Assembly (NCBI RefSeq): GCF_000024885.1 | Contig: NC_013512.1 | Span: 310,001 to 374,000 of the forward strand | DNA length: 64,000 nucleotides | Reading direction: 5' to 3' | From: Sulfurospirillum deleyianum DSM 6946 | GTDB lineage: Bacteria > Campylobacterota > Campylobacteria > Campylobacterales > Sulfurospirillaceae | Shown: positions 2,782-63,597 of the stretch, one piece after another | Numbering within the stretch: position 1 is the stretch's first letter | Layout of the letters: every line of letters starts with the position of its first letter | Translations under genes and position numbers: made by a program | Notes under the pieces: generated by a model | Seen by the model: only the letters and a program-made list of their open reading frames with translations | The model's database searches: none | What the model was told of the DNA's origin: nothing

Positions 2782-3719
2782 TACATATTCCTACTTTTTC
2801 TATAAAGGTTCAAGGTATGAAGGACTGCCATACGAATAGCAACACCGTTTTCAACCTGATTTAAAATCACCGAGTAATCCTTGTTATCGACCACATCTGA
2901 GTTCATTTCCACACCACGATTAATCGGTCCTGGATGAAGAACGATGGCGTTTTTATTTGCCAGTTTCATGCGTGTCGAGGTGAGTCCAAAAAATTTGGAG
3001 TATTCACGAACGGAGGGGAAAATGGAGCCATCTTGCCTTTCAAGCTGGATACGAAGCATAATGATGACATCGCTTCCCTCTATCGCTTCTTCCATGGAAG
3101 AGCAGACATGGCAGTCAAAAACTTCCATATGTACAGGAAGCATCATTGGAGGACCAAAAAGTTTGACGTTAATACCTAGTTTTCGCATTGCCCAAATATC
3201 TGAGCGTGCAACTCTGCTGTGGGCAATATCACCAATAATAGAAACCGTTAAATTTTCAAAACTCCCTTTATGCTCTAAGATGGTGAACAAATCAAGCAAG
3301 CCTTGTGTTGGGTGCTCATTAAGACCATCACCTGCGTTGACAATGGAAGCATCGCTGTTTTGAGCCACAAAGTGCGCTGCACCCGAACTAGAGTGACGCA
3401 AAACAAAAATATCCGTTTTCATCGCTTCCATGTTGCGAATGGTATCCACTAGGGTTTCCCCTTTTTTAGAACTGCTTTGAGAGGATGAAAAGTTAATAGC
3501 ATCAGCGCCAAGGCGTTTAGCTCCTACTTCAAAAGAGACACGGGTACGTGTGGAATTTTCATAAAATGCGTTAATAACCGTTTTGCCATAAAGGGATGAG
3601 GATTTTTTCACATCACTGTTGTTTAGTTCTTTAAACTCTTTGGCTAAATGAAGAAACGAAAGAATTTCTTCTTTACAGAGGTCTCTTAGACCAATCAAAT
3701 CTTTGTGCTGATACACCAT
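2781..3719 (-). CDS. pyrB: Aspartate carbamoyltransferase, catalytic chain
   Basis: Condenses carbamoyl phosphate with aspartate, the committed step of pyrimidine synthesis. The carbamoyl-phosphate motif [11 protein letters not shown], the mobile loop around SSSQSSSKKGETL, and HPTQGLLD are all present. The frame stays open upstream to 3791, but the ATG at 3719 (MVYQHKDLIGL) has a GAGG site and gives the usual length of 312 residues. The 24-residue upstream extension has no family similarity, so I start at 3719. No regulatory-chain gene (pyrI) is adjacent. First gene of the pyrB-pyrC pair. Confidence 0.93.
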   Translation of the reverse strand: MVYQHKDLIGLRDLCKEEILSFLHLAKEFKELNNSDVKKSSSLYGKTVINAFYENSTRTRVSFEVGAKRLGADAINFSSSQSSSKKGETLVDTIRNMEAMKTDIFVLRHSSSGAAHFVAQNSDASIVNAGDGLNEHPTQGLLDLFTILEHKGSFENLTVSIIGDIAHSRVARSDIWAMRKLGINVKLFGPPMMLPVHMEVFDCHVCSSMEEAIEGSDVIIMLRIQLERQDGSIFPSVREYSKFFGLTSTRMKLANKNAIVLHPGPINRGVEMNSDVVDNKDYSVILNQVENGVAIRMAVLHTLNLYRKSRNM

Positions 3720-3879
3720 GAGCAGTACCTCTTCGTTAATGATATGAGATGGGGGTTGGTTGCGAGTAACCAAATCCGTGCATTTTATCAAACTTTCACT
3801 TAATGAACGATTTGTAATGGGTTTACATGTAAAGATAAAAAGGTATGTTTTTTGCTTTTACATGTAAAAGGAGTGTCGC

Positions 3880-4242
3880 ATGGAAAGCAGACTGTTTGAG
3901 CTAGACCCGTATGCGGGAATTGGGTATGGATTGTACAACTCTATCAAGAAAGAAGAGGGGAGTTTTGAGGATTTTTTACTCCATTATGACTCCACCAAAG
4001 CGAATGAGGGTGATAATTCGTGGCTGACACAGCTGATCGCTCAAGATACACTGAGCACCCTCAGCTCTCCTGAAGTCTGGGAAGCCATGAATACGCTAGG
4101 TATTGGTGGGCTTGATTTTATGGGCTCAACAAACTTTTTTGATTCGCAGGTCTTTGCGTTGAAAATGCAACTCTTTGAAGCTTTTAGTCAGCGTGATGAT
4201 TATGAAGAGATGGAACCGATTTTAAAGCAGTTACTCTCTTAG
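3880..4242 (+). CDS. Hypothetical acidic protein, 120 aa
   Basis: Not recognised. A soluble, acidic protein of 120 residues with no signal peptide or membrane segment; the C-terminal third looks helical. The start is well supported: a TTACATGTAA palindrome runs straight into an AAAAGGAG ribosome-binding site 7 bases before the ATG. Its stop overlaps the stop of the convergent secreted protein gene by four bases. Codon use matches the core genes around it, so I take it as a resident lineage-specific gene. No function is proposed. Confidence 0.65.
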   Translation: MESRLFELDPYAGIGYGLYNSIKKEEGSFEDFLLHYDSTKANEGDNSWLTQLIAQDTLSTLSSPEVWEAMNTLGIGGLDFMGSTNFFDSQVFALKMQLFEAFSQRDDYEEMEPILKQLLS

Positions 4243-4592
4243 CGACACACGTAGGTGATAATATCAGCTTGGGCACTTCCAATGGTGGGTTGATACCATT
4301 GTGAGGGTTTGTTGGTGGAGATGGCTTTCAGCGAATTAACGTTGTATCCTAGCTCTCGTATCACACGTGAAGGGCAGTTGATTTCGACTTTAATATATAA
4401 AATGGTGTCATAGCTGAGTCGTTTGAGGCTCACTTGATGCAAGGTTGCTTGTTTGGTATCGGATAAAATATAGTACTTAAATTGGTCTTTGAGTGCCGTA
4501 CGAGGAACTTCAATCTCACTGTTTCTTCCATAAGAGAGTGTGACTAGGATGAAAAACATCGAGATGAACACTAAAAACTTCTCTCTAAACAT
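4239..4592 (-). CDS. Hypothetical secreted protein, 117 aa
   Basis: Not recognised. The start at 4592 (MFREKFLVFISMF) follows an AAAGGAG site; the frame is open to 4634, but that extension would bury the signal peptide. Residues 1-21 are a hydrophobic export signal ending near LSYG. The mature part is about 95 residues of mostly beta-type sequence with two cysteines (in VEINCPS and YVCR) that could pair in the periplasm. Its 3' end overlaps the convergent gene by four bases. Confidence 0.65.
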   Translation of the reverse strand: MFREKFLVFISMFFILVTLSYGRNSEIEVPRTALKDQFKYYILSDTKQATLHQVSLKRLSYDTILYIKVEINCPSRVIRELGYNVNSLKAISTNKPSQWYQPTIGSAQADIITYVCR

Positions 4593-7250: not shown

Positions 7251-8825
7251 ATGGAACTTATAGAAATTAAAGAAAAATTGGCAGAACATTTAAATACAAA
7301 ATTTTTAACAGCCCCTTATTTGTTCATAGGTTCAGGATTAAGTAAAAGATATTTAGGCTTGGAAAATTGGGAAGAATTATTGGCAAGATATTGCAAAATT
7401 GTAGAGAAACCATTTAGGTATTATAAAGATAGCTCTGAAGGTGATTTAGGAAAAGTTGCTTCTAACCTTTCAAGTGATTTCTTTGATGTTTGGTGGAAGA
7501 GTTCTGATTACAAAGATAGTCGTGAAGAATATGAAAAAATTGATGTTAAAATCGTTGATAAATCATTGCCTTTAAAATATGAAATAGCCCAATATCTCAA
7601 AACGGTAGATATTATAGATACGTTAAGTAAGTTAGATGACTCATTGAAAAGAGAGTTAGAACTTTTAAAAAAAGCTTCGGTAGATGGTATTATTACGACA
7701 AATTATGATTTATTAATAGAATCAATCTTTCCCGATTTTAAGCCTTTTATTGGGCAATCGGAGATGCTTTTTGGACGAAGCCATAATATAGCCGAGATTT
7801 ATAAAATTCATGGATGTTGTTCAAAGTTTAATTCTTTAGTTTTAACCTATGAAGATTACGAAGATTTTAATTCAAGAAATAGTTACTTAGCTGCAAAGCT
7901 ATTAACCACCTTTGTTGATCATCCTGTGATTTTTATGGGCTATAAGCTTGGTGATAAAAATATTAATGCCATTATTGAAGAAATTGTCAAAGCAATTGGT
8001 ACAGAAAATGTCAGTAAATTACAAGATAGATTGATTTTTATCAAACGAGGTGAAAGTATTGATTTTGCACGTAGTTCACATACTGTTAATCACAGTATAA
8101 TTTCAACGATTACAATTGAAACTAACTCTTTTATTCCTATTTTTGAAGCATTAGGCACAATTAAAAGAAAAGTTCCTGCAAAAATTGCACGCTTGTTCAA
8201 AGAACAATTTTATGAATTATCTGTGACCAATAATCCAAGTGAAAAACTTTGTGTTAGAGATATTGAGTCATTAAGTGATTCGAGTGATGTTGAATTTGCT
8301 ATAGGAATAGGTGTTGCGACATCGGACAAAGGGTATAGATGTATTGACATTAAAGAGTTAATTGAAGATTTTCTAAATGATGATTTAGCCTTGAATGTAG
8401 AATATGTTCTTAAATACACTATTCCAAAAGCAAAGACACATGGAAGAAATAAAAGTATACCAATCTTTAAATATTTAAATGCTGATCATATAGATTCTGA
8501 AGAAAAGTATCAAAGTAAAAAGCAGTATTTTTCTACAGAGATTATTGACTTAGTAGAAAATGGTTTTTCAAATGCTACAGCAAATCCTGCGCAAAGAAAA
8601 CTATCTTTGATTTTAGAATTAGATATTCAATGGGCTACAAAGTTAGCATATATTGCATCATTAAAGAAAGAAGAGATTATTAATGATCTTGATGAACTCT
8701 TAGCGCTATTAAAAGAGTTAAATAAAATAATTTGGTCAGCCGATCAGAATGCCATAAGTAATTTTAAAAGATTAGTTGCTATATATGATCGGTTAAAGTT
8801 TGCTTGGGATGAAAGAAAAAGATGA
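7251..8825 (+). CDS. SIR2-family protein, probable defence NADase
   Basis: A 524-residue protein with an N-terminal SIR2-like NAD-binding domain (about 20-270): FIGSGLSKRY (dinucleotide loop), GIITTNYD, IYKIHG (candidate catalytic His) and VIFMGYKLGDKNI. These motifs are typical of SIR2 domains in anti-phage proteins that destroy NAD+ on infection. The C-terminal half (about 290-524) is not recognised and could be the sensing region. The gene is clearly AT-richer than its neighbours, suggesting recent acquisition. It follows hepT by 5 bases, so toxin, antitoxin and SIR2 are probably co-transcribed. A perfect 32-bp palindrome follows the stop. Confidence 0.82.
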   Translation: MELIEIKEKLAEHLNTKFLTAPYLFIGSGLSKRYLGLENWEELLARYCKIVEKPFRYYKDSSEGDLGKVASNLSSDFFDVWWKSSDYKDSREEYEKIDVKIVDKSLPLKYEIAQYLKTVDIIDTLSKLDDSLKRELELLKKASVDGIITTNYDLLIESIFPDFKPFIGQSEMLFGRSHNIAEIYKIHGCCSKFNSLVLTYEDYEDFNSRNSYLAAKLLTTFVDHPVIFMGYKLGDKNINAIIEEIVKAIGTENVSKLQDRLIFIKRGESIDFARSSHTVNHSIISTITIETNSFIPIFEALGTIKRKVPAKIARLFKEQFYELSVTNNPSEKLCVRDIESLSDSSDVEFAIGIGVATSDKGYRCIDIKELIEDFLNDDLALNVEYVLKYTIPKAKTHGRNKSIPIFKYLNADHIDSEEKYQSKKQYFSTEIIDLVENGFSNATANPAQRKLSLILELDIQWATKLAYIASLKKEEIINDLDELLALLKELNKIIWSADQNAISNFKRLVAIYDRLKFAWDERKR

Positions 8826-59167: not shown

Positions 59168-60430
59168 ATGTTTCAATTTAATGTAACCAGCGATGCCTGT
59201 GTCAAGTGCGGTAAATGTATTCCTGTGTGTACGATTCACGAAATTAACCGTGATGAAGTCACCAGTCCTAGAGGTTTTTTAGACCTTTTAAGCGCCTATC
59301 AGCGTGGCGATTTGGAGCTGGATAAAAACGCAAAAAACATTTTTGAGAGCTGTTTTTTGTGTACGAATTGTACTTCTGTGTGTCCTAATGATTTGCCTGT
59401 GGATATGGTCATTGAGCAGGTGCGCAATGACATTCGCAAAAAGTTTGGTTTAGCGTGGTATAAAAAACTCGCCTTTTTCTTACTTCGAAATCGTAAGATT
59501 ATGGATATTTTGGCACGTTTTGGGTACATGTTTCAAACCTGTGGATTTAAGATGGTGGAGAAGCAAAAGTCGATGTATCTTAGAGACTTTCCACTCATCA
59601 AGATGGACAGACTTTTTCCAAGTCTTGCGAAAAAGACCTTTTTAAACTCCCATCCTGATGTGGTGTATCATGGTGGTAAGGGAAAAGTAGGTATCTTCAT
59701 TGGGTGTTTGGCCAATTACATGTACACCGATGTGGGCAAAACGCTTTTGGAGATTTTAAAAGAGTTACAAATAGACGCTTACCTCATAAAACAACAAAAA
59801 TGCTGTGGCGCTCCTCAATACTTTACGGGTGATTTTGACAGTGTGGATGCTTTGGCAAAATTTAATATCGAGTATATTGAAGGCTTCAAAGATGAGTTAG
59901 ACGCCATCATTATTCCTGAGGCGACCTGTAGTGCGATGATTAAAGAGGACTATGCGAAGTTTTTTCACGACCAGCCTGAGTGGAAAGAGCGTGCAGAGGC
60001 GATTAGTCCGCATATTTTTATGGCGACGGAGTATTTGGAGAAAAAAACAAACCTCGCTGAAATCTTAGCGACCAAAGCACGTAAAAGTGAAGTCGTTACG
60101 TATCATGACCCATGCCACGCACGCAAAATGCAAGGTGTTTGGAAAGAACCACGCAATCTTATTTCCCAAAACTACACCATCAAAGAGATGAGTGACCCGA
60201 ATCGCTGTTGTGGTTTTGGTGGTGTTACGATGCAAACCGAAAAATACCACTTCGCCAAAGCCGCTGGAATTCCAAAGGCTGCGATGATTAAAGAAACAGA
60301 GGCTGTGTACGTAAGTGCAGAGTGCAGTGCGTGTCGTATGCAACTGAGTGATGCGATGCATCAGCAAAAAGTCGATGTTATCTTCAAAAACCCGATTGAA
60401 TTGATTGCTAAGGCGTTAAGAGAAGGGTAA
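59168..60430 (+). CDS. CCG-domain iron-sulfur oxidoreductase (GlcF/GlpC-like)
   Basis: 420 residues: two 4Fe-4S motifs at the N terminus (CVKCGKCIPVC, CFLCTNCTSVCP), then two CCG domains (QQKCCGAPQYF and NRCCGFGGVT). This is the glycolate-oxidase/GlpC/heterodisulfide reductase subunit layout. It probably passes electrons to the quinone pool for an unknown dehydrogenase. It follows hemN by 3 bases, as its Campylobacter jejuni counterpart does, so it may serve haem synthesis. Confidence 0.85.
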   Translation: MFQFNVTSDACVKCGKCIPVCTIHEINRDEVTSPRGFLDLLSAYQRGDLELDKNAKNIFESCFLCTNCTSVCPNDLPVDMVIEQVRNDIRKKFGLAWYKKLAFFLLRNRKIMDILARFGYMFQTCGFKMVEKQKSMYLRDFPLIKMDRLFPSLAKKTFLNSHPDVVYHGGKGKVGIFIGCLANYMYTDVGKTLLEILKELQIDAYLIKQQKCCGAPQYFTGDFDSVDALAKFNIEYIEGFKDELDAIIIPEATCSAMIKEDYAKFFHDQPEWKERAEAISPHIFMATEYLEKKTNLAEILATKARKSEVVTYHDPCHARKMQGVWKEPRNLISQNYTIKEMSDPNRCCGFGGVTMQTEKYHFAKAAGIPKAAMIKETEAVYVSAECSACRMQLSDAMHQQKVDVIFKNPIELIAKALREG

Positions 60431-60524
60431 ATTCTTTTTACATGTAAAGTAAGTGAAGATTGTGTACTACTTGTTAAAATATTCAGGTATAGTGTATGAA
60501 TAAAAATTAAAAAAAGTATGTCTT

Positions 60525-61433
60525 TTGGAAAAATTTACAATTTTTGAAATTCCTTCTCATAAATATGAGTCGATAGAGCAACTTGGAACGAAACGTAAGT
60601 TTTGGTTTATAGACGATACTGATGAAAAATTAAAACTTTTTAAAATTGGTAGAGAAGGTACAGGAGAAAATTGGGTTGAAGTAGTGGTTTCACATATTTG
60701 TGAATTATTAGACATCCCACATGCAAAATATGAATTTGCGATATGGGATGAAAAATTAGGAACGATAACTGAAAGTTTTGTTCCAGAAAATGGTAGGCTT
60801 ATTCATGGCAATGAGTTGCTTGCAAAAATTCATAATAACTACCCAATTAATGAGTATAAAGTAAGAGATTATTTACTAAAACGAGTTTTAGTAATTATAA
60901 AATATATAAAAGCAGAATTGCCATTAGGCTATAGTAATGAAATGTGTAATTCTTGCTTGGATGTCTTTATTAGTTATATTTTGTTAGATTGTTTAATTTC
61001 TAATGGTGACAGACACCATGAAAATTGGGGATTTATTGTTTATGAGTCAAAAGTATATTTAGCGCCAACATACGATCATGCATCGGGTCTTGGGTGTAGA
61101 GAATCTGATGAAATAAAAACTAAAAGACTTCAAACAAAAGATCAGAATTATCAAGTTAAAAGTTTTGTAAAAAGAGCGCGAACACCTTTTTTCAATAAAG
61201 ATAAAATGTTAACAACATTGGAAGCATTTGAATTATGTGCTAATTTTGATAAAGAAATTGTATTGTTTTGGCTAGTAAAGTTAGAAGCTTTAGATTTAGA
61301 AAACGTTAGAAATATTTTTGATAAGATACCACCAGATTTAATAAGTAATATATCTATTGAGTTTGCTATAAAAGTGTTAGAAGAAAATAAAAAGAGATTA
61401 TTAGAAGTGAAAGAGGCATTGTTAAATGATTGA
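60525..61433 (+). CDS. HipT-like serine/threonine kinase (short HipA)
   Basis: 302 residues. The HipA-type catalytic loop is SNGDRHHENWGFIV (catalytic Asp, metal Asn), the DFG-equivalent is PTYDHASGLG, and the ATP lysine is probably in LFKIGREGTG. It lacks the N-terminal subdomain 1 of full HipA and has no HipB next to it, so it resembles HipT of HipBST systems. TTG at 60525 is the only in-frame start nearby; ribosome site weak. Very AT-rich compared with neighbours. The partner gene overlaps by 8 bases. Confidence 0.78.
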   Translation: MEKFTIFEIPSHKYESIEQLGTKRKFWFIDDTDEKLKLFKIGREGTGENWVEVVVSHICELLDIPHAKYEFAIWDEKLGTITESFVPENGRLIHGNELLAKIHNNYPINEYKVRDYLLKRVLVIIKYIKAELPLGYSNEMCNSCLDVFISYILLDCLISNGDRHHENWGFIVYESKVYLAPTYDHASGLGCRESDEIKTKRLQTKDQNYQVKSFVKRARTPFFNKDKMLTTLEAFELCANFDKEIVLFWLVKLEALDLENVRNIFDKIPPDLISNISIEFAIKVLEENKKRLLEVKEALLND

Positions 61434-62154
61434 AAAATTAAGTTTAGTATGGCGAAATCCGCAGACAAGAACATGGACTCCTGTCGCTTGCATTGAGTAT
61501 AAAGATAATACTTATTTTTTTAATTATACGAATGGAGCAAAAGATAAAAATTTTGTGCCATTTGGTCAAATGAATGACTTAACTAAAAAATATTCTTCAA
61601 ATGAACTATTTCCAATTTTTAAAAATAGGCTTCTTTCAAAGTCGAGACCTGAGTATGAAGATTATTTAAATTGGTTAGATATTCAGGGTGAATACAATGA
61701 TTTTTTGGAACTATCACGCAGTAGAGGCATCAGAGCCACTGATGAGCTACAATTATTTCCTATCCCTACAAAAAATGGGGCTGGAGATTATGAAGTATTG
61801 TTTTTTTCTCATGGAATCAGTCATATTGCTCCTGGATATGTTAATAGGTTAGAAAGCTTACAGAAAAATGATTCATTGTTATTATTGCAGGATATTCAAA
61901 ATGAAGCTGATCCATTTGCTTTAGCACTAAGAACAAAAGATGATCCTGTTGAATTGCTAGGGTATTGTCCTGCGTTTTTTGCAAAAGATTTCAACAAGTT
62001 ATTAGATCTAAATGGTAAAGATTATGTGCATGTTTATGTACAGAAGGTTAATTTAACAGCGCCATTACAACTAAAGTTATTATGTAAATTAGTGACAAAA
62101 TGGCATAATGATTTTATTCCTTTTGATGAAGAAGAATTTCAACCATATCTTTAA
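61426..62154 (+). CDS. HipA-N (HipS-like) plus HIRAN domain protein
   Basis: 242 residues. Residues 1-95 resemble HipA N-subdomain 1: MIEKLSLVWRNPQTRTWTPV, FFNYTNGAKDKNFVPFG, and SNELFPIFKNRLL followed by SRPEYEDYLNWL. Residues about 125-230 resemble a HIRAN domain: LESLQKNDSLLLLQDI, NEADPFALALRT and LLGYCPAFFAKDF. HIRAN domains bind DNA ends or damaged DNA. Since HipS (the isolated N1 domain) is the antitoxin in HipBST, this is probably the antitoxin or sensor of the kinase. AT-rich, and the two genes are flanked by TTACATGTAA copies. Confidence 0.7.
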   Translation: MIEKLSLVWRNPQTRTWTPVACIEYKDNTYFFNYTNGAKDKNFVPFGQMNDLTKKYSSNELFPIFKNRLLSKSRPEYEDYLNWLDIQGEYNDFLELSRSRGIRATDELQLFPIPTKNGAGDYEVLFFSHGISHIAPGYVNRLESLQKNDSLLLLQDIQNEADPFALALRTKDDPVELLGYCPAFFAKDFNKLLDLNGKDYVHVYVQKVNLTAPLQLKLLCKLVTKWHNDFIPFDEEEFQPYL

Positions 62155-62313
62155 TAATAAAAAAAGAAGCTAAACTTTAAATTCTTTACATGTAAAACTC
62201 TCATTTGAGAAAACTCCTTCCATTATTTATTATAGAACTTAAAAATTAACCACACAAATTCTAGAAAATGTAGGCGATGAGAAGTAAAAAATACCTTTAC
62301 ATATAAAGATGTT

Positions 62314-63486
62314 TTAAGCGATTAAATAGCGTTTCCAAATCCAAATCGCAAGACTTAACGCTAGTGCACCAAATAAAGCACCCACGTATCCGATACTTTG
62401 CATCCCAAGCGAGTTGATGACCCATCCCCCAATGAACGCTCCACCGCCAATCCCAATGTTATAAATACCCGAATACAAAGACATCGCAACATCGGTGGCA
62501 TCGGGGGCGAGTTCTAAAACACTCACCTGCAAAATTAAACTAATCAAACAAATAGCAATGCCCCAAAAGAGCGATAAAATACTAAAAGAGAGAACATGAA
62601 AAGAGAGCATCATCATGAAAGCTTCAGCGAAAATAAGCGCACTCAACGCAAAAAGTACCAGTCCAAAGGGGTGTTTGTGTCGTAGTCGTGCAAAGAGCAT
62701 ACTTCCCAAAAGCCCTGCAATTCCAAAAAGAAAAAGAACCGCCGTGGCAAAGCGCTCTCCTAGGTGTGCGACATGGATAACAAACGGCTCGATGTAGGAG
62801 TAGGCGGTAAAATGAGCACTAATGGCTAAAATCGTGAGCAGATACGTGCCCATCAGTGCGGGGCGTTTCATGAGGATGGGCAAACTTTTCAGTGAGCCCG
62901 CATTTTGGCTCGGCAGTGTGGGCAGGGTTTTAAAGAGGAAATAGAACATCAATACGCCTAGCAAGGCAATCACTCCAAACGTAGAGCGCCAACCCCATGC
63001 TTGACCGATAATACGTCCTAGCGGTAAGCCTAAAACAATCGCCAAAGCGCTTCCCGTGGCTAAAAAACTAAGTGCCTTCGTGGTTTGTCCTTTGGGGGCT
63101 AAACGGTAAACCAATGAAGCAGTGATTGCCCAAAAAATAGCGTGTGAAAAAGCAATGCCTATGCGTGAGAGCATTAAGATAGTGTAATTCCATGCGAAGG
63201 CGGAGAGCAGATGCGAGAGAATGAAAAAAAACAAAATCCCTAGTAAGAGCGATTTGCGCTCCACATTTTTGCTTAAAAGCATTAAGGGGAGTGAGATGGT
63301 CGCAACAATCCATGCGTAGATGGTCATCATCATGCCTGTTTGCGCTTCGCTGATGTTAAAATCTGTCGCGATGGTGGTGAGTAAGCTAATGGGCGCAAAT
63401 TCGGTGGTGTTAAAAATAAACGCGCAAATGCTCAGCCCCATAATGGGAAGCCATGCATGCAGTGAAGTGTGAAAGCGTAAAAACAT
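62314..63486 (-). CDS. MFS sugar/drug efflux transporter (AraJ/SotB-like)
   Basis: 390 residues, twelve predicted membrane helices. The N-terminal SICAFIFNTTEFAPISLLTTIA and the segment AISAHFTAYSYIEPFV resemble the AraJ/SotB sugar-efflux branch of the major facilitator superfamily. ATG at 63486; a TTG precedes it. Likely a proton-driven exporter of sugars, arabinose-like compounds or drugs. Single gene. Confidence 0.85.
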   Translation of the reverse strand: MFLRFHTSLHAWLPIMGLSICAFIFNTTEFAPISLLTTIATDFNISEAQTGMMMTIYAWIVATISLPLMLLSKNVERKSLLLGILFFFILSHLLSAFAWNYTILMLSRIGIAFSHAIFWAITASLVYRLAPKGQTTKALSFLATGSALAIVLGLPLGRIIGQAWGWRSTFGVIALLGVLMFYFLFKTLPTLPSQNAGSLKSLPILMKRPALMGTYLLTILAISAHFTAYSYIEPFVIHVAHLGERFATAVLFLFGIAGLLGSMLFARLRHKHPFGLVLFALSALIFAEAFMMMLSFHVLSFSILSLFWGIAICLISLILQVSVLELAPDATDVAMSLYSGIYNIGIGGGAFIGGWVINSLGMQSIGYVGALFGALALSLAIWIWKRYLIA

Positions 63487-63597
63487 CAAAAGACCTAGTA
63501 CAAAAATAAGCGAGTATTGTACCTAAGCAAAGAATAGAAGTGGTTGAAAACCAAAAAATTTGTATAATTCATACTAATTTACATGTAAAGAGTTGAA

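What the first reader, a model, noticed from the sequence alone, without database searches (positions are those of the whole stretch)
60525..62154. Candidate split HipA system: HipT-like kinase plus HipS-HIRAN protein, without HipB
The first gene is a HipA kinase missing N-subdomain 1; the second supplies a similar N1-like domain fused to a HIRAN-like domain. In HipBST the free N1 domain (HipS) is the antitoxin for kinase HipT. Here HipB is absent and a DNA-end or damage-binding HIRAN domain is attached, suggesting that kinase release is tied to foreign or damaged DNA. AT-rich composition, 8-base overlap and single-cassette position fit a mobile toxin-antitoxin or defence unit.
Basis: partly seen in the sequence, partly recalled or inferred. 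Interest (0 to 1): 0.8.

Follow-up and report, generated by a model that had tools for sequence, protein, structure and literature searches.

The report
HipI–HipN split kinase toxin–antitoxin pair
Two overlapping genes in a Sulfurospirillum chromosome encode a HipA-like toxin kinase and its probable antitoxin, which carries an added DNA-end-binding-type domain; this is a real, intact member of an already described but experimentally untested family, sitting in a chromosomal slot where related strains keep other anti-phage genes.

Summary
ORF 60525-61433 is a short HipA-type kinase without N-subdomain 1. ORF 61426-62154 is a HipS-like domain (residues 2-113; Z 11.8 to Legionella HipS) joined to a HIRAN domain (117-238; Z 10.6 to human HLTF). 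The pair travels together: 24 of 32 HipN loci keep an intact upstream kinase, and all 12 phage or plasmid records found with the kinase also hold HipN. It is not new in kind. Gerdes et al. 2021 (PMC8262856) named this organisation hipIN, called HipN the antitoxin and proposed that HIRAN reads phage DNA ends and frees the kinase. PADLOC lists it as candidate defence system PDC-M03. No experimental test was found. The antitoxin role is likely. DNA-end sensing remains a guess, and one basic HIRAN position is lost in this subclade.

The parts
60525..61433 (+). hipI: short HipA-type Ser/Thr kinase, 302 aa, TTG start, no N-subdomain 1
   Evidence: ORF; Pfam HipA_C 1.1e-7; PADLOC PDC-M03A 8e-110; profile hits CtkA 1.5e-17 and HipT(Lp) 1.3e-4
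60945..61181 (+). HipA_C-matching part of the kinase (aa 141-219)
60576..60599 (+). Gly-rich loop E18-x-x-G21-T22-K-x-K25 with a Ser/Thr at position 22
   Evidence: E18, G21 and K25 invariant in 24 of 24 kinases; Ser/Thr at 22 in 23 of 24
61002..61025 (+). catalytic motif N160-G-D162-R-H-H-E-N167
   Evidence: N160, D162, R163, H164 and N167 invariant in 24 of 24
61074..61076 (+). Mg-binding Asp184 (APTYDH)
   Evidence: invariant in 24 of 24
61426..62154 (+). hipN: putative antitoxin, HipS-like domain plus HIRAN domain, 242 aa
   Evidence: ORF; PADLOC PDC-M03B 1.5e-83; AF2 model pLDDT 92
61429..61764 (+). HipS / HipA N-subdomain-1-like domain (aa 2-113)
   Evidence: VIA-align: 8ezr Z 11.8, 7ab3_B Z 11.1, 2wiu Z 10.7
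61774..62139 (+). HIRAN domain (aa 117-238)
   Evidence: Pfam HIRAN 1.9e-7; VIA-align: 3k2y Z 13.7, HLTF 4s0n Z 10.6
61426..61433 (+). 8-base overlap of hipI and hipN
   Evidence: similar short overlaps (often ATGA) in most relatives
60451..62294 (.). approximate extent of the inserted cassette, set in the loop of the TTACATGTAA...TTACATGTAA hairpin that lies between the convergent flanking genes
   Evidence: comparison with empty sites G400, G403, G145 and with the filled site G399
59168..60430 (+). left flank: FeS (GlcF/CCG-type) protein, conserved in 23 of 24 genus members
62314..63489 (-). right flank: MFS transporter, conserved in 17 of 24 genus members

Best explanation
This is a hipIN module. 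HipI is a HipA-fold Ser/Thr kinase toxin that lacks the N-terminal lid, and HipN supplies that lid as a separate protein. [quoted passage not shown] The genes overlap, so their translation is probably coupled. The module is an accessory conflict cassette: it moves between phyla as a pair and occupies a chromosomal hotspot shared with defence genes, and it most likely acts as an abortive-infection type defence or as a prophage's exclusion gene. When HIRAN engages DNA ends made by an incoming phage or by DNA processing, or when HipN is lost, the kinase is freed, phosphorylates an essential target (by HipA/HipT precedent an aminoacyl-tRNA synthetase) and stops growth. Shown here: domains, intact catalytic residues, conserved pairing, mobility, hotspot, purifying selection. 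Inferred: inhibition by HipN, defence role, DNA-end trigger, kinase target.
For: Domains by Pfam and fold. Family-level match to PADLOC PDC-M03A/B over full length. Same gene order and domain make-up as hipIN in Gerdes 2021. Catalytic residues invariant in 24 kinases. Pairing: 24 of 32 HipN loci have an intact upstream kinase; 12 of 12 kinase-bearing plasmid and phage records hold HipN next door, once with an IS110 between. Kinase broken or missing in 8 HipN loci whose HipN is intact, as expected if the kinase is the harmful part. Distances of the two proteins correlate (Mantel r 0.86, 0 of 5000 permutations), and a Parabeggiatoa pair nests among Campylobacterota in both trees. Cassettes at the same site in relatives: Dsr1, PDC-S49, C5 methylase, Mrr_cat, DarG-like macro protein, Phd/RelE. 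hipIN next to the integrase in Vibrio Vinavirales prophages and in a C. difficile phage. Type I or IIG restriction genes near three relatives.
Against: No experiment on any hipIN module was found, so toxicity, neutralisation and defence are unproven. The Trp65 plug of E. coli HipS has no assignable counterpart here. The position aligned with the second Lys of HLTF GHLKK is basic in 23 of 32 HipNs but Ala or Ser in the window's own subclade, so DNA binding may be weaker or absent here. The kinase-HipN docking was not resolved (read-through model pTM 0.72). The search for decayed kinases started from HipN, so it could not see the opposite case. The defence-gene neighbourhoods were not compared with a random background.
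Confidence: 0.72

Rival explanations
1. A plain addiction or persistence module: HipN inhibits HipI as HipS does, and HIRAN only tethers the complex to DNA or helps autoregulation. No phage signal is sensed; the kinase is freed when HipN is depleted.
For: hipIN also sits on plasmids, HipBA and HipBST modules behave this way in the literature held, and no HTH regulator is present, so HIRAN could replace HipB's DNA contact.
Against: The hotspot and integrase-adjacent phage positions are typical of defence and exclusion genes; HIRAN in HLTF binds DNA ends rather than an operator sequence (cited).
Confidence: 0.25
2. HIRAN is a targeting device, not a release switch: it carries the intact HipI-HipN complex to forks or phage DNA ends, where the kinase phosphorylates a DNA-bound substrate.
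For: HipN stays constrained more strongly than the kinase (omega 0.08 versus 0.31), and HipN persists where the kinase is lost, so HipN may do something of its own.
Against: The HipS-like domain occupies the place that in HipBST blocks ATP binding, so a bound complex should be inactive.
Confidence: 0.1
3. A CtkA-like signalling or effector kinase rather than a toxin of its own cell.
For: CtkA of H. pylori is the closest solved structure by sequence (1.5e-17) and by fold (Z 25.9), and the host is in the same phylum.
Against: The HipI-HipN pair is found in Planctomycetota, Gammaproteobacteria, Cyanobacteria, Actinobacteria and phages with no animal host, and CtkA-like kinases in Campylobacterota lack HipN.
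Confidence: 0.05
4. A decaying relic with no current function.
For: Kinases are broken in 8 of 32 HipN loci, and the module occurs in few genomes of the phylum (5 of 397).
Against: Both window genes are full length with all catalytic residues; a second Sulfurospirillum has the same cassette at the same site with dN/dS of 0.31 and 0.08.
Confidence: 0.04

Closest known systems
hipIN modules (HipI kinase, HipN putative antitoxin), Gerdes, Baerentsen and Brodersen 2021, PMC8262856
   Same: Gene order kinase then HipN, kinase of 279-321 aa without N1, HipN with N-terminal HipS-like and C-terminal HIRAN domain, no HipB. Same proposed mechanism.
   Different: The paper's text names no Campylobacterota, Campylobacter or Helicobacter example (its supplementary tables could not be read). 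The hotspot, the phage positions and the CtkA relation are additions.
PADLOC candidate system PDC-M03 (A and B)
   Same: Both proteins match over their full length, 8e-110 and 1.5e-83.
   Different: Nothing; it is a computational candidate without a published test that I could find.
HipBST (HipB, HipS antitoxin, HipT kinase)
   Same: Kinase split from its N1 lid; HipS fold shared (Z 11-12).
   Different: No HipB, opposite gene order, antitoxin fused to HIRAN, kinase nearer CtkA (Z 25.9) than HipT (Z 17.7).
HipL (kinase, HipS-like and HIRAN in one chain)
   Same: Same three domains in the same order.
   Different: Here split into two genes.
HipAD / DS-6 (HipA kinase plus DUF3037 protein), PMC13092281
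   Same: Two-gene HipA-kinase system without HipB, shown to protect from phage with kinase activity needed.
   Different: Partner domain differs; it shows only that this type of kinase can serve defence.
CtkA (H. pylori JHP0940), PDB 3akj/3akk
   Same: Closest solved kinase structure; also lacks N1.
   Different: CtkA-like genes in the phylum have no HipN.

Membership tests
hipIN (Gerdes 2021) | short kinase with HipA core and the four kinase motifs, lacking N-subdomain 1 | tested here: met
   302 aa; motifs invariant; family model aligns to HipA 125-437
hipIN (Gerdes 2021) | downstream partner with N-terminal HipS-like domain | tested here: met
   fold Z 11.8 to HipS
hipIN (Gerdes 2021) | C-terminal HIRAN domain on the partner | tested here: met
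   Pfam 1.9e-7, fold Z 10.6 to HLTF and 13.7 to lp_0118
hipIN (Gerdes 2021) | two-gene operon without HipB or another HTH gene | tested here: met
   ORF table and flanks
hipIN (Gerdes 2021) | kinase falls in clade XI, HipI subclades, of the Hip Tree | not tested
hipIN (Gerdes 2021) | HipN neutralises HipI | not testable with these tools
   needs expression; not shown for any hipIN in the papers held
PADLOC PDC-M03 | adjacent genes matching PDC-M03A and PDC-M03B | tested here: met
HipBST | three genes in the order hipB, hipS, hipT | tested here: not met
   no hipB; order is kinase then HipS-like
HipBA | full-length HipA with N1, and HipB | tested here: not met
HIRAN DNA-end binders (HLTF type) | HIRAN fold | tested here: met
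HIRAN DNA-end binders (HLTF type) | binds DNA ends | not testable with these tools
   N159, G179, P182 and N209 invariant, D162 in 28 of 32, but the basic residue at 183 is lost in this subclade
anti-phage defence system | reduces phage plating | not testable with these tools
   only context evidence

The most novel reading that the evidence does not exclude
HipN is one protein that is both antitoxin and DNA-end sensor: HIRAN captures free DNA ends of an infecting or replicating phage, the HipS-like lid lifts off and the HipI kinase aborts the infection. That would be a direct foreign-DNA-sensing kinase toxin. The idea was published as a hypothesis in 2021; showing it would be new.
Probability: 0.35. 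Interest if true: 0.75.

Novelty: new member of a known kind. Interest (0 to 1): 0.33.

Why it matters
hipIN is a catalogued but untested system. This copy is compact, intact, under purifying selection, and has close relatives with the empty site for comparison, so the published DNA-end-sensing idea can be tested directly. Its place in a defence hotspot and beside phage integrases strengthens the case that split HipA kinases with HIRAN antitoxins are immunity genes. The kinase's nearness to H. pylori CtkA suggests that CtkA may descend from such toxin kinases.

Tried and rejected
HipA_N by profile: no Pfam match on either protein; resolved by fold instead. Calmodulin matches of ORF2 in phmmer (E 0.003) are compositional: neither the profile search nor the fold shows them. 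Viral contigs of IMG/VR: 28 pattern matches, none a relative, although GenBank phage records do carry hipIN. E. coli genomes: no DNA match. Rfam: nothing in the cassette. Promoter and terminator scans gave no more than shuffles. Mixed kinase and HipN alignments A5 and A9 were misaligned and not used. A kinase-first family search round the Helicobacter relatives found only the known pairs plus one weak hit. The HLTF HIRAN structure paper is not held, so individual DNA-contact residues were not checked against it.

Full report
What is there. The window lies in a 2.31-Mb complete Sulfurospirillum genome (position 310001-374000; genus taken from related records). Two genes on the + strand, 60525-61433 and 61426-62154, overlap by 8 bases and are much richer in AT (28% and 31% GC) than their neighbours. 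The first starts with TTG; relatives have ATG at the same aligned place.

Kinase. ORF1 matches HipA_C. By sequence its nearest solved relative is CtkA of H. pylori (phmmer 6e-7; family profile 1.5e-17), then HipT of Legionella (1.3e-4). In a model of a family member (Thiofilum, L034) the kinase part aligns with CtkA at Z 25.9, HipT at 17.7 and HipA residues 125-437 at 16.6, so N-subdomain 1 is missing. The Gly-rich loop (E18, G21, K25), Lys40, the catalytic N160-x-D162-R-H-x-x-N167 and Asp184 are invariant in 24 kinases, and a Ser or Thr sits in the loop in 23 of 24. The enzyme should be active.

Partner. ORF2 was modelled with 27 relatives at pLDDT 92 and pTM 0.88. Residues 2-113 match HipS (8ezr Z 11.8, rmsd 2.2 over 99; 7ab3_B Z 11.1) and HipA N1 (Z 10.7). 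Residues 117-238 match HIRAN of HLTF (Z 10.6) and of Lactobacillus lp_0118 (Z 13.7).

Pairing and spread. Among 397 Campylobacterota genomes 5 hold HipN, and in all five the kinase lies directly upstream, broken in two. A scan of one genome per species gave 27 loci in Campylobacterota, Gammaproteobacteria, Planctomycetota and Sumerlaeota. With five further phage and plasmid loci, 24 of 32 HipN genes have an intact kinase upstream and eight have a broken, remnant or unrecognisable one; HipN itself is complete in all, but the search began with HipN, so this asymmetry is only suggestive. Starting from the kinase instead, all 7 plasmids and 5 phages that hold it also hold HipN next to it, once with an IS110 in between. 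Protein distances of the two partners correlate (r 0.86), and both trees put a Parabeggiatoa (Gammaproteobacteria) pair inside the Campylobacterota clade, which points to transfer of the pair as a unit.

Setting. In Sulfurospirillum the left neighbour (FeS protein) and right neighbour (MFS transporter) are conserved, but what lies between them is not. In G400, G145 and G403 they are tens of bases apart, separated by a hairpin built from two TTACATGTAA-type words. G000 and G399 hold hipIN there; G247 and G234 a split Dsr1 (7e-96 and 1.5e-248 for G247); G379 a KAP-ATPase PDC-S49 (3.8e-137); G208 a C5 DNA methylase; G271 an Mrr_cat nuclease; G398 a DarG-like macro protein; several hold Phd/YefM-RelE pairs. 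The hipIN cassette sits in the loop of that hairpin. In the Vibrio cyclitrophicus Vinavirales prophages and in C. difficile phage phiCDKH02, hipIN lies beside the integrase, where temperate phages often carry accessory genes. Near other relatives lie type I and type IIG restriction genes. These are associations; no random-background control was run.

Selection. Between G000 and G399 dN/dS is 0.31 for the kinase and 0.08 for HipN (Nei-Gojobori). Both are maintained, HipN more strictly; kinase codons 100-150 are unusually divergent, which may reflect recombination.

How it most likely works. In HipBST, HipS binds HipT at the Gly-rich loop, inserts Trp65 near the active site and blocks ATP binding (PMC10627512; PMC9325769). 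The same fold and gene partnership make it likely that HipN inhibits HipI in this way. The plug residue is not the same: no Trp can be aligned, and the invariant R74-P75-(E/D)76 segment is the best candidate (inference). HIRAN of HLTF binds DNA ends (as cited in PMC8262856), so HipN may also read DNA. Whether binding frees the kinase, tethers the complex or does nothing here is open. Against strong DNA binding in this copy, the position aligned with the second Lys of HLTF GHLKK is basic in 23 of 32 HipNs but Ala here and Ala or Ser in its closest relatives.

What is known. Gerdes et al. 2021 described exactly this organisation as hipIN and suggested that HIRAN recognises phage DNA ends and activates HipI for abortive infection. 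A 2025 paper found HipA-HIRAN pairs next to diDNase genes in Gram-positive genomic islands (PMC11706625). PADLOC models the pair as candidate PDC-M03. A different two-gene HipA kinase system, HipAD, does protect from phage (PMC13092281). No experiment on hipIN itself was found. The finding is therefore a good, well-supported new member of a known kind. The hotspot, the phage positions and the CtkA kinship are modest additions.

Noticed in passing
window, 49 strand-matches, e.g. 3822, 8832/8852, 12901/12919, 60437, 62185: The word TTTACATGTAA is enormously over-represented: 49 strand-matches in the window against 0.06 expected; 785 forward and 787 reverse in the genome, while the reversed control word has none. 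Hundreds to about 1,000 per strand in most Sulfurospirillum genomes and many family members, but only 0-5 outside the family. It often forms hairpins between convergent genes but also lies inside ORFs. Candidate DNA-uptake-type or highly iterated palindrome; no paper describing it was found.
   Followed up: partly
window 60430-62314 and loci L102-L121: The intergenic space between the FeS and MFS genes is a genus-wide hotspot for defence and toxin-antitoxin cassettes.
   Followed up: yes
window 7251-8825 (+): A second AT-rich gene (29% GC, 524 aa) matches PADLOC candidate PDC-S25, a SIR2-type protein (1.4e-151): another likely defence gene in the window.
   Followed up: partly
L018 861-1082, L019 2078-2299: Some CtkA-like kinases of Campylobacterota, which lack HipN, have a 73-aa ORF directly beside them sharing a LDExTL...L..D.Q pattern: possible unrecognised partner or antitoxin.
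   Followed up: no
L120 378-1214, L104 325-870: Cassettes of 278 and 181 aa in the same hotspot have no Pfam match (the 278-aa one none in PADLOC either): candidate new defence genes.
   Followed up: no
L134 (phiCDKH02) 2947-4536; L054 10953-12646: hipIN beside the integrase in two unrelated kinds of temperate phage, annotated only as HipA and HIRAN domain proteins.
   Followed up: partly
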